Shown piece after piece: positions 3,457-18,954 of a DNA stretch of 21,519 nt (its first letter is position 1; every line of letters begins with the position of its first letter). The translations under genes and the position numbers were made by a program. Origin of the DNA: Methanobacteriota archaeon. GTDB lineage: Archaea; Thermoplasmatota; Poseidoniia; Poseidoniales; Poseidoniaceae. The notes under the pieces are model-generated. The model did no database searches, was not told the DNA's origin, and was given only the letters and a program-made list of their open reading frames with translations. The DNA is taken from positions 1 through 21,519 of the forward strand of contig JAPOHM010000004.1 of assembly GCA_029979405.1 (NCBI GenBank), in the 5' to 3' direction.

Positions 3457-4596
3457 ATGAGCGGTGATAAAATTGATGATTCCATTCAATCAATTTCTAT
3501 CAAGCCGAGTAAACTTGTTGGTAGTTTGAAATTGCCACCATCAAAAAGCCATGCAATGCGATGGTTGTTATTGGCAAGTATGGATTCTAACCCTACCGAA
3601 ATTAAAATGTATGAAATTGGCAAAGATGTACAAGCTATGATAGATTGCTTGTCTGATTTGGGTCTGATTTATCAAGACGAGATTATGCGCGGTGGGGAAT
3701 TGAAATTCAATACCGATACTTTGGACTGTAAAAATAGTGGGACTGCCTTACGTTTTTTGATTGGACAGGTAGCAACATGTGACGGTGAGATGACCTTTGA
3801 GGGAGACACAAGCCTCCGAGTAAGAACCTCCTTACCTCTTTTAGAATCTCTAAAAATTAACTACACGAGATTGGGTGATGATTTTTTGCCGATGAAGGTC
3901 AAAGGCCCTGTAATTTCTGAAAAAATTTCAATAGATACTTCTATTTCATCCCAATACTTATCTTCAATTTTGTTGATGACTCCAAGGACTAATGGCTTCG
4001 AATTGGTAACAACAGGTAAATCAGTTTCACAAAAGCATTCAGACCTTACTTGGGATTTATGTAAATTAACTGGTGCAAAAGAAATCGGATTGCCCTGGGT
4101 TGTAAACTGTCCCGATGTTAAGATCCCACCCGACCCTTCAATGACTGCTTTTTGTAAACTCGCAGGACTGGATATAGAAAATCCGCCAAAAGATGAGGAT
4201 TTAATCGGTCATGATTTGAACAATTTTAACCTAAAAGACTCTAACGACCTGATTACACCATTAGCAGCAATACTTGCGCTATCAGAGGGGGGCACTATTA
4301 GCGGTGCAAAACATGCCACATTCAAGGAATCAAACCGAATAACCTGTACGAGAAAAATGCTTGAACAGTTCTCGATTAACTGTAAAGAAACCGAGGATGG
4401 CCTACATATTCCTGGGGGTCAGACTCCAATTACTCCAAAACAAATAGTGAAGACTTATCGCGACCATCGAATACAGATGACTGCGGTGATATTGGCCTCT
4501 ATTTGTGGAGCTACTATTGAAGGTAAGAATTTACACGAAATTGCTTGGCCATCCTTCATTCAGCAATTGCAAAATTGTGGTTTGATTGTGGATTGA
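3457..4596 (+). CDS. aroA: EPSP synthase-like protein (shikimate pathway), divergent
   Basis: Family of 3-phosphoshikimate 1-carboxyvinyltransferase, which joins shikimate-3-phosphate and PEP before chorismate. Recognisable blocks in order are LPPSKSHAMR (Lys and Arg of the PEP site), NSGTALRFL, GDTSLRVR, SSQYLSS, FKESNR and YRDHRIQM. At 379 residues it is shorter than the usual ~420-440. Compared by eye with the E. coli enzyme, several usually fixed positions differ: SKPY reads SQKH, KE(T/S)DR reads KESNR, and the C-terminal KxFP/KSYP block reads EIAWPSF, so the late lysine is missing. No other aro gene is present. It ends 3 nt from the stop of convergent mutL. It is probably the genuine aroA of this genome, but altered specificity or kinetics is possible. 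Confidence 0.85.
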   Translation: MSGDKIDDSIQSISIKPSKLVGSLKLPPSKSHAMRWLLLASMDSNPTEIKMYEIGKDVQAMIDCLSDLGLIYQDEIMRGGELKFNTDTLDCKNSGTALRFLIGQVATCDGEMTFEGDTSLRVRTSLPLLESLKINYTRLGDDFLPMKVKGPVISEKISIDTSISSQYLSSILLMTPRTNGFELVTTGKSVSQKHSDLTWDLCKLTGAKEIGLPWVVNCPDVKIPPDPSMTAFCKLAGLDIENPPKDEDLIGHDLNNFNLKDSNDLITPLAAILALSEGGTISGAKHATFKESNRITCTRKMLEQFSINCKETEDGLHIPGGQTPITPKQIVKTYRDHRIQMTAVILASICGATIEGKNLHEIAWPSFIQQLQNCGLIVD

Positions 4597-4599
4597 AAT

Positions 4600-6501
4600 T
4601 TATCCGTGCCTTCCAAAGTGATGGTCTAATGAATTAAGTGGGATTCTCATGGCAGTAGGTCTTCCATGAACGCACGCCCAAGGGTTAGGGATTCGCCTCA
4701 TGTCGTCCAATAGTCTACGCATTTGTGCGAGGTTCAATTTTTCGTTTGCTTTCACCGCTCCCCTACATGCGTTGAGGAATGCAAAATGGTCCTTTCTTTG
4801 TTCTAGAGTCTCAAGTGGCGCACCATCCTCATTCATGTCGAGGATTATGTCATGAATGAATGGCTCAAGGTTTTCTGCAGCAAAAATTGCAGGAGCGCTT
4901 GTTATTTCATATCCTGAACTTGTCTTATTGAATTCAAACCCTATCTTTGAAAAATCTTCTATTCTTGATTCAAGCCTTGATAGCTGTCTTGCGTCTAGAT
5001 TAAGAGGAATTGAATTAATCCTTGGTTGAGATTTCCAAATTTCTTCATTATGTCTCAATCTTTCATATCTGACCCTTTCATGAAGTGCATGTTGGTCAAT
5101 CAGAAGTAATTCCTCATTTGCTTGAACTAAGATATATGAATCCGCAAATTGTGCCAATGGTTCCATCTCTGGTAAATCGTTTATCACAGGACCGATTGGA
5201 TTACTATTTGCAGGATTTTCCGAATCCATACCAGCATGTCTGTGCAATTGTCTTTCTTCTGACGATAAAGCAGGAGCTGTGGGTTTCTGCCCAGTTATTG
5301 TTTGTTGAGAAAATTCAGAGGTTGAAATTGGCCTTGGTTGAACCTTTTGTTTTTCTTCCTTTGCAATTTCACCGGATAATGAAATTTGAGCGGTTGTAGC
5401 CCAAGCCGGTTTGTTGGTATGGTGTTTGATTTCATTATTATTTGATAATGAGACTATGCCTGTGATTCCTCCACTGGATTCGGGTTCTGTTGGGGTTGAT
5501 TCAAGAGTATGAGAAATAGCCCTTTCCAATCTTTCCAGTACCCTCCAGGAGTTCTTTAGGCGCACCTCACTTTTTGTTGGGTGTACATTCACGTCAACTT
5601 CCTGATGAGGGATTTCCAAATTCAAAACAGCAACAGGATGTCTTCCCTGCATTAATCTCGTTTTGTATCCTCTTCTAATTGTCTGCAAGAAAGGTTGGGC
5701 TGCAACCGGCCTTGAATTAATCAAAATATGAATATCGTCGCCTTTTCCTCTTGTAATGTCAGGTGTTGAAATCCAACCAGACCACTCTTCTTCACCGGGA
5801 GCATCTTCGTCAATCTTTGGTGAAAATAATTGTATCATTTTCCCTGCCTGATGGCCAAGTACGTCGTATAGCCGATCATCCATTTCTAAAACCGCAGGTA
5901 CATCGAGTATTATTTTGTCATCATTTGTTAAACGAAAACCTACATCTTTGTTTGATACTGCATGTGAAATTACTATGTCTACTACTCTGCTAACTTCTGT
6001 TGAAGGCCTTCGCTGGAATGCGAGTCTTGCTGGTTGCTTCGCAAATAAATTCTCTACTGAGATTATCGTTCCTTCACCCATCCCAACTGGTAATACAGAA
6101 TTCTTGATTCCATTATCCATAGATATTGCAAAACCTTCACCTTCTTTTATTCGGGATGAAACGGTTATTTTACTTACCATGCCTATACTTGCAAGGGCTT
6201 CACCTCTAAATCCAAGAGTGTATATCTCAGCGAGGTCGCTTTGTGATTTCAGTTTACTAGTAGCATGTCTGTCTAAACATAGAGAAAGGTCATCTGGATG
6301 GATTCCTGAACCGTTATCTGAAATTTTGATGAGGTCAAATCCTCCCCTTTCAATATCTATAGAAACTTGTGTAGAGCCAGCATCAATTGAATTTTCAATT
6401 AGTTCTTTTACTACTTGCGCAGGTCTTTCAACAACCTCACCTGCAGCAATATGTCCTATTGTATAATCATCCAATTGCATTATTCTTTTCGGAGCGCTCA
6501 T
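4600..6501 (-). CDS. mutL: DNA mismatch repair protein MutL, endonuclease type
   Basis: A GHKL-ATPase that links MutS mismatch recognition to strand incision. The N-terminal ATPase blocks are intact: VVKELIENSIDAG (with the catalytic Glu), ISDNGSGI, and GFRGEALASIG at about residues 95-106. A polar, low-complexity linker spans roughly residues 330-440. The C-terminal domain carries the metal-binding endonuclease motif DQHA-x2-E-x4-E (DQHALHERVRYE), plus ACRGAVKANEKL, CVHGRP and a final FGR. These mark the nicking MutL of MutH-less organisms. At 633 residues it is full length. Its ATG overlaps the mutS stop (ATGA), implying translational coupling. The closest look is bacterial (B. subtilis-like), consistent with ancient transfer of mutSL into archaea. 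Confidence 0.97.
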   Translation of the reverse strand: MSAPKRIMQLDDYTIGHIAAGEVVERPAQVVKELIENSIDAGSTQVSIDIERGGFDLIKISDNGSGIHPDDLSLCLDRHATSKLKSQSDLAEIYTLGFRGEALASIGMVSKITVSSRIKEGEGFAISMDNGIKNSVLPVGMGEGTIISVENLFAKQPARLAFQRRPSTEVSRVVDIVISHAVSNKDVGFRLTNDDKIILDVPAVLEMDDRLYDVLGHQAGKMIQLFSPKIDEDAPGEEEWSGWISTPDITRGKGDDIHILINSRPVAAQPFLQTIRRGYKTRLMQGRHPVAVLNLEIPHQEVDVNVHPTKSEVRLKNSWRVLERLERAISHTLESTPTEPESSGGITGIVSLSNNNEIKHHTNKPAWATTAQISLSGEIAKEEKQKVQPRPISTSEFSQQTITGQKPTAPALSSEERQLHRHAGMDSENPANSNPIGPVINDLPEMEPLAQFADSYILVQANEELLLIDQHALHERVRYERLRHNEEIWKSQPRINSIPLNLDARQLSRLESRIEDFSKIGFEFNKTSSGYEITSAPAIFAAENLEPFIHDIILDMNEDGAPLETLEQRKDHFAFLNACRGAVKANEKLNLAQMRRLLDDMRRIPNPWACVHGRPTAMRIPLNSLDHHFGRHG

Positions 6502-9119
6502 TCATCAACCTCCAGAGAATTTTGCAGATCGTAAAGTGCTTGCAGTGCGTCTCTTGGACTCATAGAATCGATGTCCATATCACTTAATTTTGATTTGATG
6601 ATTTCCATTTTTTCATCCTTTTCGATAATAACGCTCGGCGTGCCTACGAATCCCAAAAGCGATGATTGTCCAGCATTTCTCGCCATTGGTGTACCCTTGT
6701 TACCGGCCTTTGCTCCGTCTGCCTGCTTTTCGAGGAAGTTTAGTAAGTCACTTGCTCGTTCAATAACATGTCTTGGAAGGCCGGCCAAAGCCGCTACTTG
6801 AACGCCATAAGAATCGTCGCACGGACCGTCCGCCACTGTGTGAAGGAATCTCAGTTCTCCATCCGTTTGAGCTACTTGGACATGGACATTCACAAGACCA
6901 CCTATTTCGCCTTCCAAACCAATTAATTGGTGATAGTGAGTCGCAAATAGTGTCCTTGAAGACAGACGTTTTGAGATATCTTCTGATACAGACCATGCAA
7001 TAGATAGACCATCAAAGGTAGATGTTCCTCTACCGATTTCATCAAGTAAAATTAGCGAGTCAGAGGTTGCCTGTTTTAGGATATGTGAAACCTCCATCAT
7101 TTCCATCATGAAAGTAGACCTACCTCTCCGAATGTCATCAGATGCTCCAACCCTGGTGAAGATTCTGTCGACGATCCCTATTTGTGCGCTATTGGCTGGT
7201 ACAAAAGAGCCACACTGCGCTAAAATCGTCACTAAGGCGGCGCACCTCAAATAGGTGGATTTACCTCCCATATTTGGCCCCGTTATCAACAAAAATTTTC
7301 TCTTCTTGTCGAACTGTAAATCATTTGGAACGAAGTTTGGCTGTAGTTCTAAAACGGGGTGCCTCAGTCCTTTTGCAACCAAACGATTATCTTCAAAAAT
7401 TACAGGTCTAGACCAAGAACGACTTCTTGCAATGGTTGCAAAACACTGGAGAACATCGATTTGAGATACATGTGTGCTAATCAATCCAAGCATCCTTGTA
7501 TTTTGTTTGCACCTTTCTCTCAAATCTCTAAACAATTCATATTCGATATTGTTCGCTTTCGTGGATGCTGTTAGCAATTTATCTTCCCAGTGTAACAATT
7601 CATCCGTTACGTATCTATTTCCGTTAGTCATTTGTTGCTTTCTCTTCCATTCATCTGGGACCTTAGACAAATGTGATTTTGTGACTTCTATATACCAACC
7701 TATTTGCCTGTTATGCTTGACTTTCAGTGATGGAATTTGTAATCTATTTCTTTCCTTTGTTTCCAAATCTTTGAACCATTTTTTGCCTATTGATGCTGCA
7801 GTTCGCAAATCATCTAAATTAGAATCGATACCCTCTCGAATAATTCCTCCATCTTTCATAGATAGTGGTTGTTCATCATTTAGATTAGCCTGAATATCAA
7901 TTTTCATCATCTCTAATACATCTAAATCTTCGGAGATTTTGTTTAACAATTCATCATCCATTTGTCTGCATATAGATTTTAGCTTTGGCATTCTTTCCAA
8001 TGCTAATGAAATGGCAACGAGATCTCTACCTGTGGAACGGTTGTAAGATAACTGAGTAGCTAATCGCTCCATATCTCTCAAACCTTTGAGAACATCTCTT
8101 ATCTCATCCAATCTTTTCGATGAACGAGCAATGCTCGCAACAGAGTCTTGTCTCTCCTCGATTTGTTCCTTGGATGCCAATGGTCGTAATATCCACTGTT
8201 TCAAGCACCTTCTTCCCATTGCAGTTCGGCATTTGTCGATAGAGCCAAGAAGAGATCCTTCTTTTTCTCCAGATAGCGTCTGTGTTAATTCTAAGTTTCT
8301 TAATGTGGTTTGGTCTAAGATTAAACTATCATTTGGGCGTAATATTTCAACGTCTTTGAATGATATTGATTCCATCAAGTGCATTGATGACAAGTAATCA
8401 GCGGCGAGGCCTGCCGCTTCCATGGCAATCGGAAAGTCCCCAAGGTCGATATGTCCTAAATCGGCTACTTCCAATATCTGTTTTAGTGCTTCATCAGATT
8501 TTCTCTTTGAAGTTGAGTGCTGTGAGAGTGTTATATTATCAATATTAGAAATAATTCTTCGGAGTTCGTCCTTTTCTGAGTCTTTAGGAGTGAACACTAA
8601 TTCTCTAGTACTACTACGTAGTAAATCATCTAATACTCTGTCCAATCGGTCTACGCCATTATATTCTACAGCCCACAGGTTTCCAGTGCTTGCGTCTAGT
8701 ATAGCTAAACCAACAGAGTCATTTTTTATCAAGATACTAGACAAGTTAGCGACTTCATCAGTTCCGATTAAACTCTCTTCATACAATGACCCTGGGGTGT
8801 AAATTCGAGTAACGACCCTTTCGAGTAGTTTTGCACCTTCCCTCAATTCTTCTTCTTGTTCAGCCACACAAACTTTGTGACCGGCTTTTAGCATCGCTCT
8901 TAGGTTGTCTTCAAGTGCATGCCATGGAAATCCTGCCATAGGTATTGGATTTTCAGCATTCTTATCCCTACTTGTTAAAGCCAATCCGAGTACTTCTGAA
9001 GCGACAACTGCGTCGTCATGGAATTGTTCATAGAAATCTCCCATTCGGAAAAATAAGACAGAATCTTGGTGTTCAGATTTGATGTCCATATACTGGTCCA
9101 TCATCCCCCTCTTGGCCAA
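6498..9119 (-). CDS. mutS: DNA mismatch repair protein MutS (MutS1)
   Basis: Mismatch-recognition ATPase. The N-terminal mismatch domain has the FxE motif as GDFYEQF (about Phe29 and Glu31), followed by the connector, lever and clamp regions. The ATPase has Walker A GPNMGGKST (around residue 616), the STFMMEM segment, Walker B LLDEIGRGTS (around 693) and FATHYHQL. The conserved C-terminal helix-turn-helix tail (SPRDALQALYDL) is present. The length of 873 residues is typical of bacterial MutS1. The start at 9119 is a TTG, since an in-frame stop lies 4 codons upstream. An ATG at 9104, directly behind AGAGGGGG, would give a protein starting MMDQYM, matching the bacterial PMMxQY start region equally well, and may be the true start. 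It is the first gene of a mutS-mutL operon. Confidence 0.97.
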   Translation of the reverse strand: MAKRGMMDQYMDIKSEHQDSVLFFRMGDFYEQFHDDAVVASEVLGLALTSRDKNAENPIPMAGFPWHALEDNLRAMLKAGHKVCVAEQEEELREGAKLLERVVTRIYTPGSLYEESLIGTDEVANLSSILIKNDSVGLAILDASTGNLWAVEYNGVDRLDRVLDDLLRSSTRELVFTPKDSEKDELRRIISNIDNITLSQHSTSKRKSDEALKQILEVADLGHIDLGDFPIAMEAAGLAADYLSSMHLMESISFKDVEILRPNDSLILDQTTLRNLELTQTLSGEKEGSLLGSIDKCRTAMGRRCLKQWILRPLASKEQIEERQDSVASIARSSKRLDEIRDVLKGLRDMERLATQLSYNRSTGRDLVAISLALERMPKLKSICRQMDDELLNKISEDLDVLEMMKIDIQANLNDEQPLSMKDGGIIREGIDSNLDDLRTAASIGKKWFKDLETKERNRLQIPSLKVKHNRQIGWYIEVTKSHLSKVPDEWKRKQQMTNGNRYVTDELLHWEDKLLTASTKANNIEYELFRDLRERCKQNTRMLGLISTHVSQIDVLQCFATIARSRSWSRPVIFEDNRLVAKGLRHPVLELQPNFVPNDLQFDKKRKFLLITGPNMGGKSTYLRCAALVTILAQCGSFVPANSAQIGIVDRIFTRVGASDDIRRGRSTFMMEMMEVSHILKQATSDSLILLDEIGRGTSTFDGLSIAWSVSEDISKRLSSRTLFATHYHQLIGLEGEIGGLVNVHVQVAQTDGELRFLHTVADGPCDDSYGVQVAALAGLPRHVIERASDLLNFLEKQADGAKAGNKGTPMARNAGQSSLLGFVGTPSVIIEKDEKMEIIKSKLSDMDIDSMSPRDALQALYDLQNSLEVDE

Positions 9120-11122: not shown

Positions 11123-12901
11123 ATGCGAGTTGCAGTTCTCAAGGAAGATAACTGTCAACCAAAGAAATGCATGGATGAATGCTTTGCCTTTTGTCCTCCT
11201 GTTCGAAATGGACAAGAATGTATAGTTATGGATAATGTTACTGGAAAACCACATATTTCAGAATCGCTATGTATTGGTTGTGGAATCTGTGTTAACAAGT
11301 GCCCACATGACGCACTTATCATTACTCAACTGCCCTCAGAGTTAGAAAGTGATATGATTCACAGGTATTCTCTTAACGGGTTCAGGCTATTCCGCCTGCC
11401 AACTCCCTCTAAAGAATCAGTTGTTGGAATTCTTGGCCCCAACGGGATGGGTAAATCAACAGCTTTCAAGATTCTAAACGGTTCAATCACACCGAATTTA
11501 GGAGATTTTGAAGCAGATGAAGTATGGTGGGAAGATGTGATAGAAAGCCTACCTCGTGGAGAATTGAGGGATTTCTTAATCGATGTGAGTAATTCCAAAG
11601 TTAAGGTAGCCTTGAAACCACAATATGTCGATAACATTCCCAAAGCCGTAAAAGGAAAAGTTGGGTCTTTATTGGAATCGGTTGATGAAAGGGATGTCTA
11701 TCAAGAAATGGTCGAGAAATTAGGTCTAAGCAAACTGCTTGACAGAGAATTAACTCAGTTGTCTGGTGGAGAATTACAAAGGGTAGCAATTTGTGCTACA
11801 CTATTGAAGAAGGCTGACGTTTACTTCTTCGATGAACCATCTTCTTATCTCGATATCCACGAAAGGATGAGAATTGTAAGAATTATTCAAGAATTATCAG
11901 AAAGTGCTAGAGTAATTGTAATCGAACACGATTTGGCGGTTTTGGATGTTCTTGCTGATTTAGTACACATTGTTTATGGGAGAAAAGGTGCGTTTGGTAT
12001 TTTTACCCCAGCAAGGTCAACAAGACAAGCCATCAATGCATATCTTGACGGTTTTTTAGTAGAACAAAATGTCAGGATTAGAGATAAGCCAATAAAATTC
12101 CAAACTCACACTGATCGGTCTAATGAGATTGGTAATCCTGTGGTAGAATGGGGAGATTTAGGCAAAACTCTAGGTGATTTCAATCTTCAAACAGGTACTG
12201 GCAAGGTCCACCAAGCCGAAGTTGTGGGAGTTGTAGGCCCTAACGGCACTGGAAAATCTACTATGGTCAAAATTTTGGCAGGTGAACACGAATACGATTC
12301 AGGTTGGGTAACTGCAGACGCTTCAATTTCATATAAACCGCAGCATATCGAAACTAATCTTGATTGTACGGTTCAGACCTGGTTAGATGCTGAAATTGGA
12401 CCCCGTTGGAGAAGCGGGGAATTCAATGTGAATGTGATAAGAGCCCTTGGGGTGGACGAACTTCTTGCCAAGCAGGTGAATAACTTATCAGGAGGAGAAT
12501 CTCAAGCAGTATCGATTGCGATATGTCTAGGAAGAGATGCTGATTTGTATTTACTTGATGAACCAAGCGCGCATCTTGACGCAAATGCAAGAATGGAAGC
12601 GGCTAAAGCGATTAGAAGAACCATGGAATCCAATGAAAAAGCGGCATTCGTAATTGACCATGACGTCTATTTCATTGACATTGTATCAGATTCACTATTG
12701 GTATTCGAAGGCGAAGGGGGAGTGAGTGGAAAAGCTGAGGGTCCATTTGGTCTTCGAGAGGGAATGAATCGATTCTTGTCAGGAGTCGATGTTACATTCA
12801 GAAGAGACCATGATTCCAAGAGACCGCGTATAAACAAATCCGAATCCAGAAAGGATCGAGAGCAAAGAGTTGCTGGGGATTACTATTCATTTGATTCATG
12901 A
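11123..12901 (+). CDS. rli1: Ribosome recycling factor ABCE1 (Rli1), Fe-S ABC ATPase
   Basis: A soluble twin ABC ATPase that splits post-termination ribosomes with aRF1/Pelota in archaea. The N-terminus has two ferredoxin-like [4Fe-4S] cysteine sets: CQPKKCMDECFAFCP, and CIGCGICVNKCPHDA at about residues 52-66. The first nucleotide domain has GPNGMGKST, LSGGELQR and FFDEPSSYLD. The second has GPNGTGKST, LSGGESQA and LLDEPSAHLD. The length, 592 residues, matches the family. A GGAGAGGATAAC leader precedes the ATG. The stop is 9 nt before nuclease A, whose ribosome-binding GAGG overlaps this stop, so the three genes 11123-16303 are probably co-transcribed. All key residues are present. Confidence 0.97.
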   Translation: MRVAVLKEDNCQPKKCMDECFAFCPPVRNGQECIVMDNVTGKPHISESLCIGCGICVNKCPHDALIITQLPSELESDMIHRYSLNGFRLFRLPTPSKESVVGILGPNGMGKSTAFKILNGSITPNLGDFEADEVWWEDVIESLPRGELRDFLIDVSNSKVKVALKPQYVDNIPKAVKGKVGSLLESVDERDVYQEMVEKLGLSKLLDRELTQLSGGELQRVAICATLLKKADVYFFDEPSSYLDIHERMRIVRIIQELSESARVIVIEHDLAVLDVLADLVHIVYGRKGAFGIFTPARSTRQAINAYLDGFLVEQNVRIRDKPIKFQTHTDRSNEIGNPVVEWGDLGKTLGDFNLQTGTGKVHQAEVVGVVGPNGTGKSTMVKILAGEHEYDSGWVTADASISYKPQHIETNLDCTVQTWLDAEIGPRWRSGEFNVNVIRALGVDELLAKQVNNLSGGESQAVSIAICLGRDADLYLLDEPSAHLDANARMEAAKAIRRTMESNEKAAFVIDHDVYFIDIVSDSLLVFEGEGGVSGKAEGPFGLREGMNRFLSGVDVTFRRDHDSKRPRINKSESRKDREQRVAGDYYSFDS

Positions 12902-12910
12902 GGCTAAATC

Positions 12911-14515
12911 ATGCCAGCCCAGATTCCTCCTGAAGCTCAGTCTATTGGAAGGTCACGGAGTAGGCTTTCAGCATCATCACTTACCACATTTCTAAGATGT
13001 AAGAAGCAGTGGTTCTTGAATTATAGGATAGGTCTCAGAGGTCCCGTTTCACCACCTCAGATTATGGGGATCGAAGTAGAGGATGCTTTCTGTTCAATTC
13101 TAATGCACAGGGCGCCAATAGTGGATTCAGTAGAGGATTTGTCATCGTGGCTTGAAGGGCTGATAGATGAGTATGGCCAAAAGGCGATTGATAATGGTAT
13201 AAATTCCTTTGAAGAATCTATTTGGAAGGATGGTGAGTTTTCAGATTACTTCGATATTGAAATTGTTTGTAACATGCTTAGAAACGGTATTGGATTGCAA
13301 TTAGAAGAAGTAAAGAAATGCTTTGAGGCAGGGGGAGGGCAAACCGAATTCGAAATCCCTGCCCCATGTTGGGATAATCCTCCTACATTTCTACAGCCAG
13401 AGAAAGCCAATAGCATGGTGTCATGGAAAGATGAAATCCATGTTTTCTCAAATCCAATAACGTGGCAGGACGCTTGGGAAATTGCTCGTCCGTGGGTAAA
13501 AGACCCAAGGAATCCCGAGCCTCAAAGAATGTATCATGCTGATAGATGGGCTGCCGGGGAATGTGATTTAGTTCACCGTTGGGATGGCAGAACAAGAATA
13601 ATCGATATAAAAATCGGGGACGGAGAAGGGTCTTTTTCTTCAAGTCTTAAACATCAACTAAATTTTTATGCATGGCTATGGAATGAAACTCATGATTCAA
13701 CTTGTGATGGAATTGAAGGATGGTATTTGAAAAATGGATTGAGGAAAGAAGTAGACCTAAATCCAAAAACAACTGAAGAATATCGAGAAATATACGAAGA
13801 AATGAGGAATTGGAATCTTACGAATGCGTTCCCAATCGATGAACCATGCTCCGGTGAACAAGCAGGTTGTAGGTGGTGTAAATTAGACCAATTACCATTT
13901 GAAAAGCCGATGATTTCTTCACCTTGTGAATTGATTTCTACAATCCCTTACCGTGTTAATGTTAAGGGCTCTTTGCAGGCTTCCTGGGGGCCTTTGCCAA
14001 ATCACTACGGAGAATTAGTCTTAGGAGCTATGATAAAATCTGGTGATAAGATGGTGACTTTGGAGGAAAGCCAGCCAAATTCTTTCCCCAAAATGCATGA
14101 TTCTCCTCAAGATGAAGTCATCGTAACTGGAGCATTACCTGGTGTTTGGAGAGGGCAACCAAGATTATATTTAGATAATCAAAGCTCTATAGAAGTTGGT
14201 GCTAAGTGTGAATTGACGAGGATGGGGATGCTACGCACAAAAGCAAATGTTCAGGGCATAGTCATATCAATTTCACGTAGAAACGGTATCCGTGCAGATG
14301 GAAGGCCATGGTCGATGGTGTCATTACATATCTGGGACGGAGAAAGCGTTGCAGAGTTGGTTGCATTTGGTTCTTCAATAAAGGGCTCTATTTTGTCTAT
14401 GAAGCAAGGAGATGAAGTTAGAATAATCTCTGCTGACCTTGGTTGGCGTGAGGGAATTATTCAGCTCAGAGTTGATAAAAGAACAACCAGAATCGAGATA
14501 CTATCGAAGGATTGA
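12911..14515 (+). CDS. Iron-sulfur PD-(D/E)XK nuclease with C-terminal OB-like region, paralogue A
   Basis: A predicted Cas4/Dna2/AddB-like (RecB family) nuclease of 534 residues. The N-terminal RLSASSLTTFLRC ends in Cys30. The nuclease core has GECDLV (Asp219), IIDIK (Asp232 and Lys234) and the family's QxxxY motif as QLNFY (Gln249, Tyr253). Cys313, Cys320 and Cys323 (CSGEQAGCRWC) follow, giving the one-plus-three cysteine pattern of a [4Fe-4S] nuclease. After about residue 345 come two stretches that look like OB folds; the last (about 445-530, with WSMVSLHIWDGE and GDEVRIISADL) resembles RPA-type OB folds. A conserved block AWEIARPWVKDP (188-199) lies before the catalytic Asp and is shared with paralogue B. 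It is coupled to ABCE1. No helicase domain is present, unlike Dna2 and AddB. The substrate is unknown; single-stranded DNA processing is a reasonable inference. Confidence 0.85.
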   Translation: MPAQIPPEAQSIGRSRSRLSASSLTTFLRCKKQWFLNYRIGLRGPVSPPQIMGIEVEDAFCSILMHRAPIVDSVEDLSSWLEGLIDEYGQKAIDNGINSFEESIWKDGEFSDYFDIEIVCNMLRNGIGLQLEEVKKCFEAGGGQTEFEIPAPCWDNPPTFLQPEKANSMVSWKDEIHVFSNPITWQDAWEIARPWVKDPRNPEPQRMYHADRWAAGECDLVHRWDGRTRIIDIKIGDGEGSFSSSLKHQLNFYAWLWNETHDSTCDGIEGWYLKNGLRKEVDLNPKTTEEYREIYEEMRNWNLTNAFPIDEPCSGEQAGCRWCKLDQLPFEKPMISSPCELISTIPYRVNVKGSLQASWGPLPNHYGELVLGAMIKSGDKMVTLEESQPNSFPKMHDSPQDEVIVTGALPGVWRGQPRLYLDNQSSIEVGAKCELTRMGMLRTKANVQGIVISISRRNGIRADGRPWSMVSLHIWDGESVAELVAFGSSIKGSILSMKQGDEVRIISADLGWREGIIQLRVDKRTTRIEILSKD

Positions 14516-14542
14516 ATAAACTCCAACTACGACGAGGGGTTC

Positions 14543-16303
14543 ATGCCTGTCAGTTCAATCAATCCAGAACATGATACTGTTGGCAAATTTAACAGGCTAT
14601 CCGCATCCCAAGCAAATACTTTCGCAGAATGCCCAAGAATTTGGTGGTATCAGAATAATTTGAGATTAAAGTTTGGACAAACGCCTCCTCTCTTCTTGGG
14701 TCGAGCAGTAGAAGAGTGTGTTACTAGAGTAATGATGGAATCTCCAGGTATAGTAACTTCATCAGCTCCGATTACTGTTTTACAGAATGGTGCAGATAAC
14801 CTACTTCCTTTGTATGATAGTGAAATTTCGAATGACATTTCTCAATGGTATGCCTCAAGAATAGCAAAGTATTGGCCAGATATTTGTAAAGCGATGCAAG
14901 AAGAATGGAGTAAAAATCCTAGAAAAGCAGGCAATTGGCATGATTATTCAATGGAAGAATACATGCAAATGTGTATTACTGCTCTTGATTTACATTTAGA
15001 GGAAGTACTTATAGTGAAGGAATCTATTTCTGATGAGGAGTTACAGAAGTGGAGAAATGGTGATGATAACCTCCTGATAAGATCTCCAGACAGGAGAGAA
15101 CAATTGGGACCTCATCCACTCGCAAGGGATGGGCCATGTCACCTTGTTGAAGCTTGGGAAATAGCAAGGCCATGGTTTGTAGACCCTGATTTAGAGCCAT
15201 TTTCACAAAACGCAATACATCCAGAATATTGGTTTCAAGGGGAGTATGATTTAGTTTACAGACATAGTTCAAAAATTAAAATTGTAGATCTAAAAGCAAG
15301 CAAAGGCGTAGGAGACAGAAGTGGCAACTATGTCGAACAATTGAAGATGTATGCAATGTTATGGTCAAAAACACATAATGGACAAATTCCGAAGGAACTT
15401 GAAGTCTGGTATTTAGGAGTAGGTAAGAAAAAGTCAGTAAAGCCTCCGACTGAAGATCAAATCACTGTTTTAGAAAGCCAGCTAAACCAATTATGGAATG
15501 AATTAAAATCAAGAACGGTTACAATATCAGACTGTCCTCCTAAACCTTCAGATTTGAGAGGATTCTCTGAAGGAGGGGTTCCGACTGAAGCACCAGAAGG
15601 TGTAAGGTGCGACAGTTGTGAGTGGTCAAAATTATGTCCTGGCGGACAAGGAAATGATAATTACAAAATAATCGATAATATCCAACCAAAAGGGGAAATT
15701 AAATCATATGAATTAACCCAACTAAGTAAATTAGAACCTAGGGTGAATATTTTCTGTGAGGTTTTTAGCGTCACTAAGAATAGCGAAGGAATTCCCAACG
15801 TAATGGTTCAACAAGATGGCGGAAAAGCATTTGTAAAAATAATTTCAAAACAAAGTGAAGGACAACTTACTTACGAGCCTGAAATAGAAAAAGGAGATTT
15901 TATTAGATTGGTTGGAGTAATCCCTTCAACTAATTGGAAAGGTGAAATTGAATTGAAGATCGACCCTCATGCCAGGATGATAAAGTCATCACGTGCTGAA
16001 GATGGAGACTGTGGACTTTTTGACTTCAAAGCAAGATGGAATTTGTATGGAAGAGTTGCATACAAGACATATAAGTACGGTATTGGCAAATCTGGAAAAC
16101 CATGGATTCGCAAGGGAATTGTATTGATTGATGATCAGACCAAAGTAACAGTTGAAGGTTGGGACAATTCCTGGCCTGCCATTTACAACACACTTCAGCA
16201 AGGAGATGAAATTGCAATTTTGAATGCTTCACTAGATGCTTGGGCTGTAGATGTCAAAGCAAACTTAGAGAAAAACACATCAATAATTCGAATTACGGAT
16301 TAA
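14543..16303 (+). CDS. Iron-sulfur PD-(D/E)XK nuclease with C-terminal OB-like region, paralogue B
   Basis: A diverged tandem duplicate of the preceding gene, 586 residues. The same order is visible: RLSASQANTFAEC (Cys30, same position as in A), block AWEIARPWFVDP (204-215), GEYDLV (Asp236), IVDLK (Asp249 and Lys251), QLKMY (Gln266, Tyr270), then Cys356, Cys359 and Cys365 (CDSCEWSKLC). All catalytic and cluster residues are kept, so it is probably active. The C-terminal ~200 residues look like two OB folds (about 400-480 and 497-583). Compared with A it has extra residues before the core (about 95-185). The start has a strong GAGGGG site and lies 27 nt after gene A. Its TAA is 10 nt from the tRNA-Ser 3' end. 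A physical partnership of A and B is inferred from pairing only. Confidence 0.85.
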   Translation: MPVSSINPEHDTVGKFNRLSASQANTFAECPRIWWYQNNLRLKFGQTPPLFLGRAVEECVTRVMMESPGIVTSSAPITVLQNGADNLLPLYDSEISNDISQWYASRIAKYWPDICKAMQEEWSKNPRKAGNWHDYSMEEYMQMCITALDLHLEEVLIVKESISDEELQKWRNGDDNLLIRSPDRREQLGPHPLARDGPCHLVEAWEIARPWFVDPDLEPFSQNAIHPEYWFQGEYDLVYRHSSKIKIVDLKASKGVGDRSGNYVEQLKMYAMLWSKTHNGQIPKELEVWYLGVGKKKSVKPPTEDQITVLESQLNQLWNELKSRTVTISDCPPKPSDLRGFSEGGVPTEAPEGVRCDSCEWSKLCPGGQGNDNYKIIDNIQPKGEIKSYELTQLSKLEPRVNIFCEVFSVTKNSEGIPNVMVQQDGGKAFVKIISKQSEGQLTYEPEIEKGDFIRLVGVIPSTNWKGEIELKIDPHARMIKSSRAEDGDCGLFDFKARWNLYGRVAYKTYKYGIGKSGKPWIRKGIVLIDDQTKVTVEGWDNSWPAIYNTLQQGDEIAILNASLDAWAVDVKANLEKNTSIIRITD

Positions 16304-16313
16304 TTTTAACAGG

Positions 16314-16396
16314 CGCCGAGAGAGAGATTTGAACTCCCGTGTCCGAAGGACAGTGGATTTCGAATCCACCGCAATACCGGGCTATGCGATCTCGGC
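16314..16396 (-). tRNA. tRNA-Ser (CGA anticodon)
   Basis: On the minus strand the acceptor arms GCCGAGA and TCTCGGC pair perfectly, followed by discriminator G, normal for serine. The anticodon stem GTGGA/TCCAC holds loop TTCGAAA, anticodon CGA, reading UCG. A long variable arm (TGTCC-TTC-GGACA) marks a class II tRNA, and the T arm is GGGAG-TTCAAAT-CTCTC. No intron is visible. The 3' CCA is not encoded: the next bases are CCT. Confidence 0.95.
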
Positions 16397-16420
16397 AAAC
16401 AATGCGCCCACCTGCACGAC

Positions 16421-16430
16421 CATCATAAGA
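16421..16430 (-). promoter_or_regulatory. Possible TATA box for tRNA-Ser
   Basis: On the minus strand TCTTATGATG is centred about 30 bases upstream of the mature tRNA 5' end, giving a short leader. It is followed by GTCGTGCAGG, loosely like the GTCG blocks downstream of the ribosomal TATA boxes. Only spacing and likeness support it. Confidence 0.35.
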
Positions 16431-16451
16431 GTGATGTTATTCGGGAAGTAC

Positions 16452-16652
16452 ATGCAAGTGACCCTAATCTCGGGTAAAGATGAGCATACTTTTGAGTTGG
16501 AACGGGGGTCCACTGTGAGACAAGTGCTTGATTTGGCAAATATTCATCCCTCTACCGTCATCGTTAGTTACGAAGATACTGTTCTACCACACTCAACAAC
16601 TCTAAAAGGTGACATCAGACTTGAGATAACTATCGTCAGTTCTGGTGGCTAA
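16452..16652 (+). CDS. Small ubiquitin-like beta-grasp protein (SAMP/MoaD/ThiS family) with Gly-Gly tail
   Basis: A 66-residue protein with the beta-grasp pattern: strand MQVTLI, then GSTVRQVLDLANIHPSTVIV, LRLEITIV-like last strand (RLEITIV) and a C-terminal SSGG. The length, the middle LxLANIxPxxV block and the Gly-Gly end match haloarchaeal SAMP2 and Urm1-type proteins. These serve as sulfur carriers in tRNA thiolation and as protein modifiers. I chose ATG 16452, which follows GGGAAG and gives the usual length; ATG 16434 would add six residues. A longer frame from 16329 would run through the tRNA gene and is not credible. It is divergent from tRNA-Ser and its stop abuts the stop of the convergent PAC2 gene. 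Sulfur carrier and modifier roles cannot be separated here; no E1-like (UbaA/MoeB) gene is in the window. Confidence 0.85.
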   Translation: MQVTLISGKDEHTFELERGSTVRQVLDLANIHPSTVIVSYEDTVLPHSTTLKGDIRLEITIVSSGG

Positions 16653-17405
16653 TCACATATAGATTGAATTCGCTGATTCCGACATTTCGGATATCAAATC
16701 CTCAGCTTTGTTGGGATGTATTTCTTTCAACTTGTCAGCTAATCTGTTTGTTGCATCGATTGGAATCGGTAACGGTAAACTCCACCATTTCCTTACAGTT
16801 TCGAGTAATAATTGAGCACCTACAGGGTCTAGCGATTTCCCAACAGTTGTTGCAATTACACAAGAAGAATTAACTCCATGAATGGGACTTAGTGCAGTTA
16901 TTAGTGCGGCCATTCCAATAATTCCAGCCTTAGGTTCATTTCTTCGAACATCGACCCCTTGTTTTTCCAGTTGTATTCTATATTGCGAGTTACCAGTTAC
17001 TGCAAACACTTCTTTTCTTTCCGGATTTGTTACCATGCCAGCAAAAACAATGATTTCACCACCTGCGAAAATCTCGATAATTGAGTTAGCCAACTCATAT
17101 TGTCCTTCTGGAGTCATTGGCTGAGCGTCACCGGTTAAGGTGAAGATTATTTTATTATCAATCTCTAATTTTGATAATAACACATGAGGCGGTTGAAGTA
17201 AACCGTCTTCGTCCAACTTGGCAAGGGGAGGAAAAGCAGGATGTATGATTCTTGCAATAGGCTCGGCGTCAAGCTCTAGATTAATTGCATCGATTGCTAA
17301 TTTACCGATATCTCCTACACCCGGCATAGCAACGAGTAGAGTCTCACCTTCTGTATTAGGTCTGGATATCCAATCAATGAGTGCACTCATAAATCTAAAG
17401 TGCAT
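16653..17405 (-). CDS. PAC2 (proteasome assembly chaperone-like) family protein
   Basis: Archaeal PAC2-like protein of 250 residues. Family features are the early glycine turn in LLVAMPGVGDIGKLAID, a central strand-turn set around FTLTGDAQPMTPEGQYELA, GEIIVFAGMV, and the block AGIIGMAALITALSPIHGV. The fold is known from eukaryotic proteasome assembly chaperones. The biochemical role in archaea is not settled. It is the last gene of the run rpl44e-rps27e-aIF2alpha-nop10-PAC2, 24 nt after nop10, an arrangement widely kept in archaea. A second in-frame ATG at 17390 (MSALIDW) may be the true start; neither has a clear ribosome-binding site. Confidence 0.82.
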   Translation of the reverse strand: MHFRFMSALIDWISRPNTEGETLLVAMPGVGDIGKLAIDAINLELDAEPIARIIHPAFPPLAKLDEDGLLQPPHVLLSKLEIDNKIIFTLTGDAQPMTPEGQYELANSIIEIFAGGEIIVFAGMVTNPERKEVFAVTGNSQYRIQLEKQGVDVRRNEPKAGIIGMAALITALSPIHGVNSSCVIATTVGKSLDPVGAQLLLETVRKWWSLPLPIPIDATNRLADKLKEIHPNKAEDLISEMSESANSIYM

Positions 17406-17429
17406 TTAGGCACAGTATAATGGTTGGCA

Positions 17430-17642
17430 TTATTCTTCTTCATCAGAACTTAATGTTGGAAGTGAATTGACCCACCCATCCTCTTCAACTCCGTCCAATT
17501 TTCTTCGTATGTGTGCTCTTTTGTCTTCTGGTGACCACTTGATTGGAGCTGCGGCCTTTGCGACAGAACCACATTTTGGACAAGTGGTTTCAAGACAGTA
17601 CTCTAAGCAGTCGACGCATTGTTGCATTGATTGCCTAACCAT
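17430..17642 (-). CDS. nop10: H/ACA ribonucleoprotein protein Nop10
   Basis: Small zinc-ribbon protein of the H/ACA guide-RNA pseudouridylation complex (with Cbf5, Gar1 and L7Ae), acting on rRNA. Two CxxC knuckles are present (Cys9/Cys12 and Cys21/Cys24, the latter CPKCGS), followed by the Nop10 hallmark WSPEDKRAHIRRKL, equivalent to the usual FSPEDRYGKYRR. At 70 residues it is slightly long because of an acidic tail (SSDEEE). The ATG follows the aIF2alpha TGA after one base, so translation is probably coupled. The start could also be the sixth codon, another ATG. Confidence 0.9.
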   Translation of the reverse strand: MVRQSMQQCVDCLEYCLETTCPKCGSVAKAAAPIKWSPEDKRAHIRRKLDGVEEDGWVNSLPTLSSDEEE

Positions 17643-17643
17643 C

Positions 17644-18456
17644 TCATTCCCTCTGAGCTTCAGCAGAGCCTCCAGAGGCTACCACAACGTCGATACAAGC
17701 CTTTGTAGCTCTATTCCAACCATCTTCAGCAGTCTTGAAATCTGGAGCCTTAAGTTCGATTCTGTAACTTGGCGCTCCATCGTAATGACAAGATACTTCC
17801 AACTCGGTTTCACTGTCTGAAACGGATTCTGCAGCGATCAAGGCTTCCTTGATTATTTCTATACCATCCCCGTCGTCGACATTCAGAGTGAAATGTCCTC
17901 GAATTTCTACTGTATCAGGGATGATATTCTTGATAGCGATTTCAATAAATGGTTGAATCCAATTGCCTTCAAATCCTAATTCTGAAAGTGATTCAGGCTT
18001 CGTTGCTGCTTCTTCGAAGGCGCCGTAAAGTGTCCCGAATGATTCTGTCAAGTCCACTTGATTCTCAGTGAGTTGGTCCTGATTCCAACCGACTTGTTCA
18101 GATAGAACCTTGAACAATTGTTTCGCTCTTTCTTCATTTTTCCATTCAGCAAGCCTGTCTCTTTTTCTTTCTTCACTTACAGACTTAAGAGACAATTCCA
18201 GAGATTTGTTGTCCTTTCTTGTTCTGAGAACTTTACAGATTAGCCTTTGCCCAGGTCTAGCGTAAGAACGGATATTCTTTACCCAACCACTTGCAATTTC
18301 ACCAATGAAAATAAATCCTTCAATGCCCTCATATTCTTCCAAATCTACGTATGCACCGTTTTGTTTTACTTCTCTTACGAGGGCGACAACCAGTTCGCCT
18401 TCTTGAGGTCCATCATCAATGATGCCTTCGGGCAAGGAGGTCAAGCCTCCATTCAT
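17644..18456 (-). CDS. eif2a: Translation initiation factor aIF2 subunit alpha
   Basis: Alpha subunit of the heterotrimeric initiator-tRNA carrier. The N-terminal S1-type OB domain spans about residues 10-85 (GELVVALVREVKQNGAYVDL, then EGFIFIGEIASGWVKNI and SLELSLKSVS). The helical middle domain runs to about 170, and the C-terminal alpha-beta domain that binds the gamma subunit is seen in AIKNIIPDTVEIRG. The length, 270 residues, is normal. In place of the usual HISEVS-type loop this protein has FIGEIASGWV, a mild departure. Its ATG overlaps the rps27e stop (ATGA) and it is followed by nop10. Confidence 0.96.
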   Translation of the reverse strand: MNGGLTSLPEGIIDDGPQEGELVVALVREVKQNGAYVDLEEYEGIEGFIFIGEIASGWVKNIRSYARPGQRLICKVLRTRKDNKSLELSLKSVSEERKRDRLAEWKNEERAKQLFKVLSEQVGWNQDQLTENQVDLTESFGTLYGAFEEAATKPESLSELGFEGNWIQPFIEIAIKNIIPDTVEIRGHFTLNVDDGDGIEIIKEALIAAESVSDSETELEVSCHYDGAPSYRIELKAPDFKTAEDGWNRATKACIDVVVASGGSAEAQRE

Positions 18457-18623
18457 TCAAGGGACTCAACGACATTACAGCCGACCAGCTGGGCCTTGCC
18501 ACCAGCAGGGTTTGTCAGTGTAGCGCCACATACTGCACAAGATATTACAGTCGTAGCACGTGAGAATATGATGCTTTCATTGGAGCAGTCTCTGCATGAT
18601 ACTTTAAGGAAATTTGATGCCAT
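18453..18623 (-). CDS. rps27e: Small-subunit ribosomal protein eS27 (S27e)
   Basis: A 56-residue zinc-ribbon ribosomal protein found by translating the gap between aIF2alpha and rpl44e. The protein begins MASNFLKVSCRDC, with Cys10/Cys13 and Cys29/Cys32 (CAVCG) as zinc ligands, then ATLTNPAGGKAQL and a VVESLE end, all typical of archaeal S27e. The ATG is preceded by GAGGTGA, which overlaps the rpl44e stop, at a spacing of about 6 bases. Its own TGA overlaps the aIF2alpha ATG. Confidence 0.96.
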   Translation of the reverse strand: MASNFLKVSCRDCSNESIIFSRATTVISCAVCGATLTNPAGGKAQLVGCNVVESLE

Positions 18624-18633
18624 AATTTTCACC

Positions 18634-18918
18634 TCAGTTGTCTACTAATTCGAATTTCTTTGCTCTCTGGCATGGAGCGTAATGTGCTTTACCAGTTTCA
18701 GTACATCGGTATAGAATGTTAACTCTCTTTGTAGGTTTTTCTCTTCCATCTGGTTTAGGACGTGGGAAACCGCGATATCCTGCCATAACTCTTCGGAATC
18801 TTCTCTGACCCCACTTAAGTTCGCTTGCGCGCTTCTTTTTCACACGCTCTACAGTGTGCATAGTGTGCTTACCAGCACTTGGACTGTACCTCTTTATTTG
18901 ACGTGGCATTTTGACCAT
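18634..18918 (-). CDS. rpl44e: Large-subunit ribosomal protein eL42 (L44e), zinc ligands mostly lost
   Basis: A 94-residue basic protein near the ribosomal E site. The family frame is clear: MPRQIKRYSPSAGKHTMHTV, ELKWGQRRFRR, KPTKRVNILYRC and a final RAKKFEL. The usual first knuckle YCPxC reads YSPSA here, and the second, CxECG, reads CTETG. Three of the four zinc cysteines are therefore missing; one extra Cys occurs in HYAPC. I chose the ATG at 18918 because AGGTGA lies 4 bases before it; the longer frame from 18939 would put that site inside the gene. It is the first gene of the operon leading to rps27e, 10 nt away. Confidence 0.94.
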   Translation of the reverse strand: MVKMPRQIKRYSPSAGKHTMHTVERVKKKRASELKWGQRRFRRVMAGYRGFPRPKPDGREKPTKRVNILYRCTETGKAHYAPCQRAKKFELVDN

Positions 18919-18954
18919 AGTCTCACCTTGAGCACCCAAGCCACCATCGACCTG

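What the first reader, a model, noticed from the sequence alone, without database searches (positions are those of the whole stretch)
12911..16303. Tandem pair of iron-sulfur PD-(D/E)XK nucleases carrying C-terminal OB-like regions and no helicase
Two adjacent, clearly paralogous but diverged genes both keep the full Cas4/Dna2/AddB-type set. This is one N-terminal Cys (position 30 in both), Asp + DxK, QxxxY, and three C-terminal Cys. Each then adds ~190 residues that look like two OB folds. Known relatives usually sit in CRISPR loci (Cas4) or are fused to helicases (Dna2, AddB). Here neither context is present. A heterodimeric nuclease with its own ssDNA-binding module is a plausible new DNA-processing unit.
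Basis: partly seen in the sequence, partly recalled or inferred. Interest (0 to 1): 0.78.

Follow-up and report, generated by a model that had tools for sequence, protein, structure and literature searches.

The report
Paired archaeal nucleases with ssDNA-binding arms
Two neighbouring genes of marine Poseidoniales archaea encode old sister DNA-cutting enzymes, each predicted to carry an iron-sulfur cluster and a built-in arm like the one that cells use to hold single-stranded DNA; this combination seems peculiar to that order, and its cellular job is not yet known.

Summary
Genes A (12911-14515, 534 aa) and B (14543-16303, 586 aa) are full-length paralogues (hhalign E 2e-58). Each has a Cas4/AddB-like nuclease domain with intact motifs II, III and QxxxY, four cysteines placed for an Fe-S cluster, and two C-terminal OB folds (AlphaFold2 pLDDT 90 and 88; RPA-like by fold and profile).

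A or B occurs in 119 of 145 Poseidoniia genomes; all 78 matches in a 292-genome phylum sample lie in that class. They split before the sampled members radiated.

An obligate heterodimer is disfavoured: A was lost once, in a clade that keeps B (37 genomes), and B was lost five times with A kept. "No helicase" is true of the locus only: 114 of the 119 genomes also encode an AddA-like helicase-nuclease.

Best explanation: helicase-free, ssDNA-directed nucleases with their own RPA-like arms, serving core replication or repair. Substrate and pathway are inferred. A mismatch-repair link found no support once the tree was considered. It is a new variant of a known nuclease superfamily.

The parts
12911..14515 (+). 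Gene A, 534 aa: Fe-S-type PD-(D/E)XK nuclease plus tandem OB
   Evidence: ORF; PF12705 45.7 bits; alignment of 83 sequences
12962..13891 (+). Gene A nuclease domain (residues 18-327): C30, E57, E217/D219, D232/K234, Q249/Y253, C313/C320/C323
13943..14200 (+). Gene A first OB fold (about residues 345-430)
   Evidence: strands 349-428 in the AlphaFold2 model; Foldseek tandem-OB hits
14228..14512 (+). Gene A second OB fold (about residues 440-534), RPA-like
   Evidence: strands 444-530; profile match to an archaeal RPA OB, E 0.03
14543..16303 (+). Gene B, 586 aa: paralogue of A, same architecture
   Evidence: ORF; PF12705 67.6 bits; hhalign A vs B E 2e-58
14576..15649 (+). Gene B nuclease domain (residues 12-369): C30, E57, E234/D236, D249/K251, Q266/Y270, C356/C359/C365
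15710..15997 (+). Gene B first OB fold (about residues 390-485)
   Evidence: strands 401-481; Foldseek tandem-OB hits to RPA70
16025..16300 (+). Gene B second OB fold (about residues 495-586), RPA-like
   Evidence: strands 498-583; profile match to an archaeal RPA OB, E 0.005
11123..12901 (+). ABCE1 (Rli1) gene directly upstream, 9 nt before A; probable co-transcription (inferred)

Best explanation
A and B are two ancient, separately usable paralogues of a Cas4/AddB-like Fe-S nuclease that gained a C-terminal tandem-OB arm of the RPA type. The arm holds single-stranded DNA and the nuclease core cuts it with divalent metal and no ATP. Metal ligands are D219/D232 (A) and D236/D249 (B), with K234/K251 completing motif III and Glu57 in the place of the usual motif I His. 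The Fe-S site staples the fold.

In the cell they would trim flaps, overhangs or ssDNA gaps made by helicases, polymerases or the AddAB-like enzyme during chromosome replication and repair: a Dna2-like or Exo5-like job without an attached motor. Fold, motifs, paralogy and distribution are shown by computation here. ssDNA preference, polarity, cluster occupancy and pathway are inferred.
For: Nuclease family match and fold match to ACE1, AdnA, AddB and Dna2, for B also Cas4. Invariant active-site residues in A and B. Tandem OB by structure, with hits to RPA70, Teb1, Pot1 and HIN-200 and by profile to archaeal RPA. In the solved relative Pcal_0546 the same motifs give metal-dependent ssDNA exonuclease activity (PMC4176176, abstract and passages seen).

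Housekeeping profile: A+B lie directly behind ABCE1 and face the L44e-S27e-aIF2alpha-Nop10 cluster in the window. In 73 of the 80 loci fetched for A from named genomes both genes are present next to each other on one strand, with gaps of -59 to 112 nt. With B as query, none of 14 pattern matches in viral contigs was confirmed as a relative and no phage record matched; A was not used as query there.
Against: I found no biochemical or genetic data for either protein. OB folds also bind proteins, RNA or dsDNA (HIN rows with dsDNA are in the lists), so ssDNA binding is not proved. Foldseek pairs over both OBs have rmsd of about 12-20 A, so the arm's geometry differs from RPA. Each gene has been lost in some lineages. 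Five genomes that have the AddA-like protein, and so are probably Poseidoniales, show neither A nor B (G050, G070, G096, G121, G140); incomplete assemblies may explain this but completeness is not given. Two A-only genomes (G109, G146) have lost the N-terminal Cys and the C-x2-C pair, so the cluster is not indispensable. The neighbouring genes are mostly for translation, not DNA repair, apart from MutS/MutL.
Confidence: 0.6

Rival explanations
1. A and B form a heterodimeric nuclease, like AdnA-AdnB but without motors, in lineages that have both.
For: Adjacent, same-strand genes in 73 of 80 fetched A loci; both keep catalytic residues; duplication precedes the sampled radiation, so they have coexisted long.
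Against: B-only in 39 and A-only in 6 of 119 positive genomes (tally in 93); B lost five times with A kept; A lost once with B kept in all 37 genomes of that clade on the tree; in L111 (G110) a 191-aa gene stands between A and B. No complex was modelled.
Confidence: 0.2
2. A/B is the excision exonuclease for the MutS-MutL mismatch repair whose genes lie about 4 kb upstream.
For: MutS/MutL are near neighbours in the window; MutS1 is present in 79 of 80 A-positive and 13 of 39 B-only genomes (tally in 93).
Against: On the B tree the A loss is one event, MutS changes three times, and only one independent pair exists, so the correlation has no support. 13 B-only genomes keep MutS without A, and 16 of the 26 genomes with neither A nor B have MutS. 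MutS is not always near A, e.g. in G103 and G029 they are on different contigs.
Confidence: 0.12
3. Solo-Cas4-type defence protein against viruses.
For: Weak matches to DruK and Cas4 profiles in PADLOC; best fold row of the nuclease domain is the Argonaute-associated ACE1; pfam12705 members are known in defence loci (PMC5704561 section 8).
Against: Fixed housekeeping locus and parallel A and B trees, no recognised defence gene beside it in the window, no Cas1 in 50 Poseidoniia genomes tested, no relative of B confirmed in viral contigs or phages.
Confidence: 0.08
4. The pair replaces NurA (with HerA) as the DNA-end resection nuclease.
For: NurA is found in 0 of 40 A/B-positive genomes against 5 of 8 other Thermoplasmatota genomes.
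Against: A/B-negative Poseidoniia also mostly lack NurA (1 of 10 positive), and NurA is a divergent family easily missed. HerA was not searched. An AddA-like helicase-nuclease, the more natural resection enzyme, is in 114 of 119 A/B-positive genomes.
Confidence: 0.12

Closest known systems
Cas4 (DUF83/COG1468 and DUF911), e.g. Pcal_0546 and SSO0001
   Same: RecB-like nuclease fold, motif II, DxK/ExK, QxxxY, four Cys for an Fe-S cluster, no helicase
   Different: Below curated Cas4 cut-offs; motif I His replaced by Glu57; motif III is DxK where Pcal_0546 has Glu136; about 200 extra residues forming two OB folds; no Cas1 in the 50 Poseidoniia genomes tested
AddB / AdnA nuclease domains
   Different: No helicase or helicase-like part; OB arm instead. 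The genomes carry a separate AddA-like protein, with a PDDEXK_1 neighbour in the two loci read
Dna2
   Different: No SF1 helicase; [quoted passage not shown]
ACE1, Argonaute-associated Cas4-family protein (9iab, 9iac)
   Different: 266-269 residues in the solved chains, so no room for the OB arm; different gene context, judged from its name only
Archaeal RPA (8aa9, 8oej) and RPA70 tandem OB
   Same: OB folds of the arm; second OB reaches profile E 0.005 (B) and 0.03 (A)
   Different: Fused to a nuclease; relative placement of the two OBs differs
UvrD-Cas4 and YprA-Cas4 fusions or operons of pfam12705
   Same: Same Pfam family, outside CRISPR
   Different: Those are tied to helicases and often to defence genes (PMC5704561 section 8); A/B are not

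Membership tests
PD-(D/E)XK nuclease superfamily, PF12705 PDDEXK_1 | profile match over the curated cut-off | tested here: met
   45.7 and 67.6 bits against 22
PD-(D/E)XK nuclease superfamily, PF12705 PDDEXK_1 | motif II Asp, motif III D/ExK, QxxxY | tested here: met
   same residues in 112 of 112 A rows and 140 of 140 B rows, one X each at B Q266 and Y270
PD-(D/E)XK nuclease superfamily, PF12705 PDDEXK_1 | nuclease activity on DNA | not testable with these tools
   needs assays
Cas4 (TIGR00372 / PF01930) | score over the curated cut-off | tested here: not met
   A: 18.9 bits against 22.7 for PF01930, B not listed; A 20.9 and B 30.8 against 65 for TIGR00372
Cas4 (TIGR00372 / PF01930) | one N-terminal and three C-terminal Cys | tested here: met
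   canonical spacing in B; shifted C-x6-C-x2-C in the window's A
Cas4 (TIGR00372 / PF01930) | motif I His | tested here: not met
   Glu57 aligned with that His of 4r5q, invariant
Cas4 (TIGR00372 / PF01930) | Cas1 in the genome or locus | tested here: not met
   0 of 50 Poseidoniia genomes; control positive in 9 of 14. Solo-Cas4 exist, so this alone is not decisive
AddB / AdnA / Dna2 | helicase or helicase-like region in the same chain | tested here: not met
   Pfam finds the nuclease only; the models show nuclease plus two OB folds
AddB / AdnA / Dna2 | nuclease domain fold | tested here: met
RPA-type tandem OB | two consecutive OB folds | tested here: met
RPA-type tandem OB | single-stranded DNA binding | not testable with these tools
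   inferred from the fold and from invariant residues, aromatic ones among them, in the arm
Obligate two-subunit nuclease | both genes always together | tested here: not met
   39 B-only and 6 A-only of 119 genomes; contiguous A-only loci
EXO5 | EXO5 profile and sliding ssDNA exonuclease activity | not tested
   recalled as a possible analogue; no EXO5 comparison was made

The most novel reading that the evidence does not exclude
Poseidoniales carry a helicase-free, self-contained ssDNA-processing module: an ancient duplicated Fe-S nuclease that bears its own RPA, with Glu in place of the motif I His as an altered metal site. The two paralogues divided the work (for example opposite polarity, or replication flaps versus repair gaps), so that either can be lost alone. 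It would do in these archaea what Dna2 with RPA does in eukaryotes, beside an AddAB-like resection enzyme.
Probability: 0.25. Interest if true: 0.72.

Novelty: new variant of a known kind. Interest (0 to 1): 0.5.

Why it matters
Poseidoniales are among the commonest archaea of the sunlit ocean (recalled), and I found no paper on how they process DNA ends, flaps and gaps in the listings I searched. A nuclease with its own RPA-like arm is a natural test of whether Dna2-like work needs a motor. The natural A-only and B-only genomes, and the A proteins that lost cysteines, give ready comparisons for what each copy and the Fe-S site do.

Tried and rejected
Strict co-occurrence / heterodimer: tested with whole genomes and trees, rejected as obligate. 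Seven B-only loci (L107, L108, L109, L113, L114, L116, L117) were annotated to look for a degenerate A or a new partner; no second A/B-like gene was seen in any of the 7. Neighbour proteins were printed for 4 of the 7 (L107, L108, L109, L117); by eye they look like a radical SAM protein, and in two of them a PdxT-like amidotransferase (names recalled, not tested).

Mismatch-repair partner: the raw counts looked good (79 of 80 against 13 of 39), but the tree leaves one independent pair, so I dropped it as evidence. The one A-positive genome without MutS (G119) has A at base 3840 of its contig, so that may be an assembly gap.

NurA replacement: suggestive only. The Rad50 hook model was too weak to use: 5 of 58 with a match, 2 over the cut-off. 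HerA, Mre11, Fen1 and RecJ were not searched. Viral or phage origin: no match for B. PDB sequence search with single proteins gave nothing for A and one weak Cas4 row for B (E 0.12); profiles did better. PADLOC gave weak matches only.

Literature: searches; I saw listings of at most 15 rows each (of 4, 1,125, 6, 524, 0, 3, 1, 1,266 and 94 papers) and none was about these proteins. The library holds only openly licensed PMC papers.

Limits: the genome search gives no completeness values here. No complex prediction was available. The protein searches list only the best 120 of 283 (A) and 489 (B) hits, so more distant relatives outside the order were not seen and are not excluded. One search kept the best 80 of 158 A relatives, so the 73-of-80 count is of A-bearing loci only. 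L081-L106 (26 more loci, partly from the same genomes) are left out of it; with them it is 98 of 106. Many A rows are short at the N terminus because of my ORF picker or contig ends. The trees are 'quick' IQ-TREE runs with long branches flagged, midpoint-rooted, without outgroup.
Full report
WHAT IS THERE. The window comes from a Poseidoniales (Marine Group II) archaeon: the 100%-identical protein record is named Candidatus Poseidoniaceae, and the 80 loci kept bear Poseidoniales, Poseidonia or euryarchaeote titles, except one titled Rhodobiaceae (L080), which encodes the same family and is probably mis-binned. A (12911-14515) and B (14543-16303) follow ABCE1 (11123-12901) with gaps of 9 and 27 nt. 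PDDEXK_1 is over the cut-off in both; Cas4 models are under theirs.

ARE THEY PARALOGUES. hhalign of the two family alignments (83 and 80 rows) aligns 539 columns at 23% identity, E 2e-58. A joint tree of 69 rows puts all 36 A rows on one side and all 33 B rows on the other (SH-aLRT 100), with broadly parallel subclades in each half. So the duplication is older than the sampled members. The root is a midpoint and no outgroup was used.

ACTIVE SITE AND CLUSTER. Residues of motifs II, III and QxxxY do not vary in 112 A and 140 B rows, save two ambiguous letters in B; rows include the window and some genomes twice. [quoted passage not shown] Cys mutants of Pcal_0546 and SSO1391 lost the cluster but not DNA cleavage, whereas in SSO0001 the cluster matters for activity (PMC4176176, abstract and passages seen). 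In A and B that His is Glu57, judged from the 4r5q alignment to B and from the A-B alignment. The four Cys of B are invariant. In A, lineages differ: C-x2-C-x5-C in several rows (e.g. G048, G103, G029), C-x6-C-x2-C in the window and its nearer kin, a tighter C-x-C-x2-C in G046, G110 and G136, and loss of the N-terminal Cys and of the C-x2-C pair in G109 and G146.

STRUCTURE. AlphaFold2 gave mean pLDDT 90.3 (A) and 88.3 (B). Among the 50 rows shown for each, the nuclease domain matches ACE1, AdnA, AddB and Dna2, and for B also Cas4. The C-terminal part is two OB folds: Foldseek's best hits are HIN-200 and RPA for A, RPA70 and Teb1 for B. Independently of any model, profiles of A and B reach an archaeal RPA OB with E 0.03 and 0.005 over the second OB. 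OB folds of this general shape occur in many proteins, tRNA synthetases in the same lists included, so ssDNA binding is inferred.

DISTRIBUTION. With the B profile 119 of 145 Poseidoniia genomes match at E <= 1e-5, with the A profile the same number. The phylum sample gave 78 of 292, and every matching handle also belongs to the Poseidoniia set. By my tally, taking a best E below 1e-60 or a true fragment as presence, 74 genomes have A+B, 39 B only and 6 A only (G109, G111, G134, G143, G145, G146). Of the 26 negatives, 21 are small genomes (0.7-1.4 Mb) without the AddA-like protein, perhaps Marine Group III. The other five (G050, G070, G096, G121, G140) have the AddA-like protein, so they are probably Poseidoniales that lack A and B or whose assemblies miss them. 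Among 80 A loci from named genomes, 73 hold B next to A; of the other 7, two (L069, L076) end too soon and five (L013, L015, L060, L064, L077) run on without B. In L015 the place of B holds genes for a 1403-aa protein with WD40-type matches and a 549-aa M23 peptidase. In L185 and L187 (G109, G146) it holds a 279-aa gene and one of about 2480 aa. On the tree of 73 B proteins the B-only state (37 rows) needs one change. On the A rows the A-only state needs five. These results speak against an obligate A-B complex.

FUNCTIONAL CONTEXT. Cas1: 0 of 50 Poseidoniia and 2 of 8 other Thermoplasmatota genomes. NurA: 0 of 40 A/B-positive, 1 of 10 A/B-negative Poseidoniia, 5 of 8 others. PDDEXK_1 matches were found in 58 of 58 genomes, and the capped listing shows further PDDEXK_1 proteins beside A and B in many A/B-positive ones. 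In G003 and G072 these include a 1604-1645 aa protein with UvrD and PDDEXK_1 domains next to a 1203-1228 aa protein with a PDDEXK_1 domain. The former is closest in PDB to AddA, then RecB; the latter had no PDB match. The AddA-like protein is in 119 of 145 genomes, 114 of them A/B-positive; G002, G037, G100, G118 and G136 have A or B but no AddA match. So end resection is likely done by that enzyme, and A/B more likely act on flaps, gaps or overhangs; this is inference. MutS1 follows A in raw counts but not after the tree is taken into account.

LOCUS. Downstream, facing B, lies the L44e-S27e-aIF2alpha-Nop10-PAC2 cluster (window 16653-18939, - strand; L44e and aIF2alpha named by eye). In many archaea that cluster is contiguous with the genes of PCNA, PriS and Gins15 (PMC2643942, abstract and passages seen). 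This makes a chromosome-maintenance role plausible but proves nothing, since the genes converge.

VERDICT. A real, conserved and, as far as sampled, order-specific architecture: Fe-S PD-(D/E)XK nuclease with an RPA-like tandem-OB arm, duplicated early. The nuclease family and OB folds are known kinds; the combination as a free-standing paralogous pair did not appear in the paper listings seen. I rate it a new variant of a known kind.

Noticed in passing
L140:5724-14194 (G003) and L139:6816-15334 (G072): Poseidoniales encode an AddAB-like pair: a 1604-1645 aa UvrD helicase with a C-terminal PDDEXK_1 domain next to a 1203-1228 aa PDDEXK_1 protein; the helicase is in 119 of 145 Poseidoniia genomes.
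   Followed up: partly
window 4600-9119: Bacterial-type MutS and MutL next to each other; MutL reads DQHALHERVRYE, which fits the endonuclease motif DQHA-x2-E-x4-E (motif recalled), so a nicking MutL is likely.
   Followed up: partly
G109 and G146, gene A (L185:4778-6604, L187:9410-11242): A proteins that lost the N-terminal Cys and the C-x2-C pair but keep the catalytic residues, in genomes where other genes stand in the place of B.
   Followed up: partly
L015:11657-17597 and L187:1085-9395: The slot of B is taken by large genes (1403 aa with WD40-type matches, 549 aa M23 peptidase; about 2480 aa), as if this place were an insertion hot spot.
   Followed up: no
window 16312-16652: tRNA-Ser(CGA) on the - strand (16312-16396) overlaps the TTG start of a ThiS/SAMP-like ORF (16329-16652, matches below cut-off); the real start is probably further in, as some relatives are 66-69 aa.
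   Followed up: no
window 16653-18939: Archaeal L44e-S27e-aIF2alpha-Nop10-PAC2 cluster on the - strand, facing the A-B genes.
   Followed up: partly
40 A/B-positive Poseidoniia genomes: No NurA found in any of the 40, while 5 of 8 other Thermoplasmatota genomes have one.
   Followed up: partly
L141:5979-7133, L142:6884-8113 (G003): Two further free-standing PDDEXK_1 proteins of about 400 aa, with likenesses in many A/B-positive genomes in the listing; the second also passes the Cas4 PF01930 cut-off.
   Followed up: no
L080 (CALDQY010000232.1): A contig titled Rhodobiaceae bacterium encodes gene A with about 44% identity to the window's, probably a mis-binned archaeal contig.
   Followed up: no
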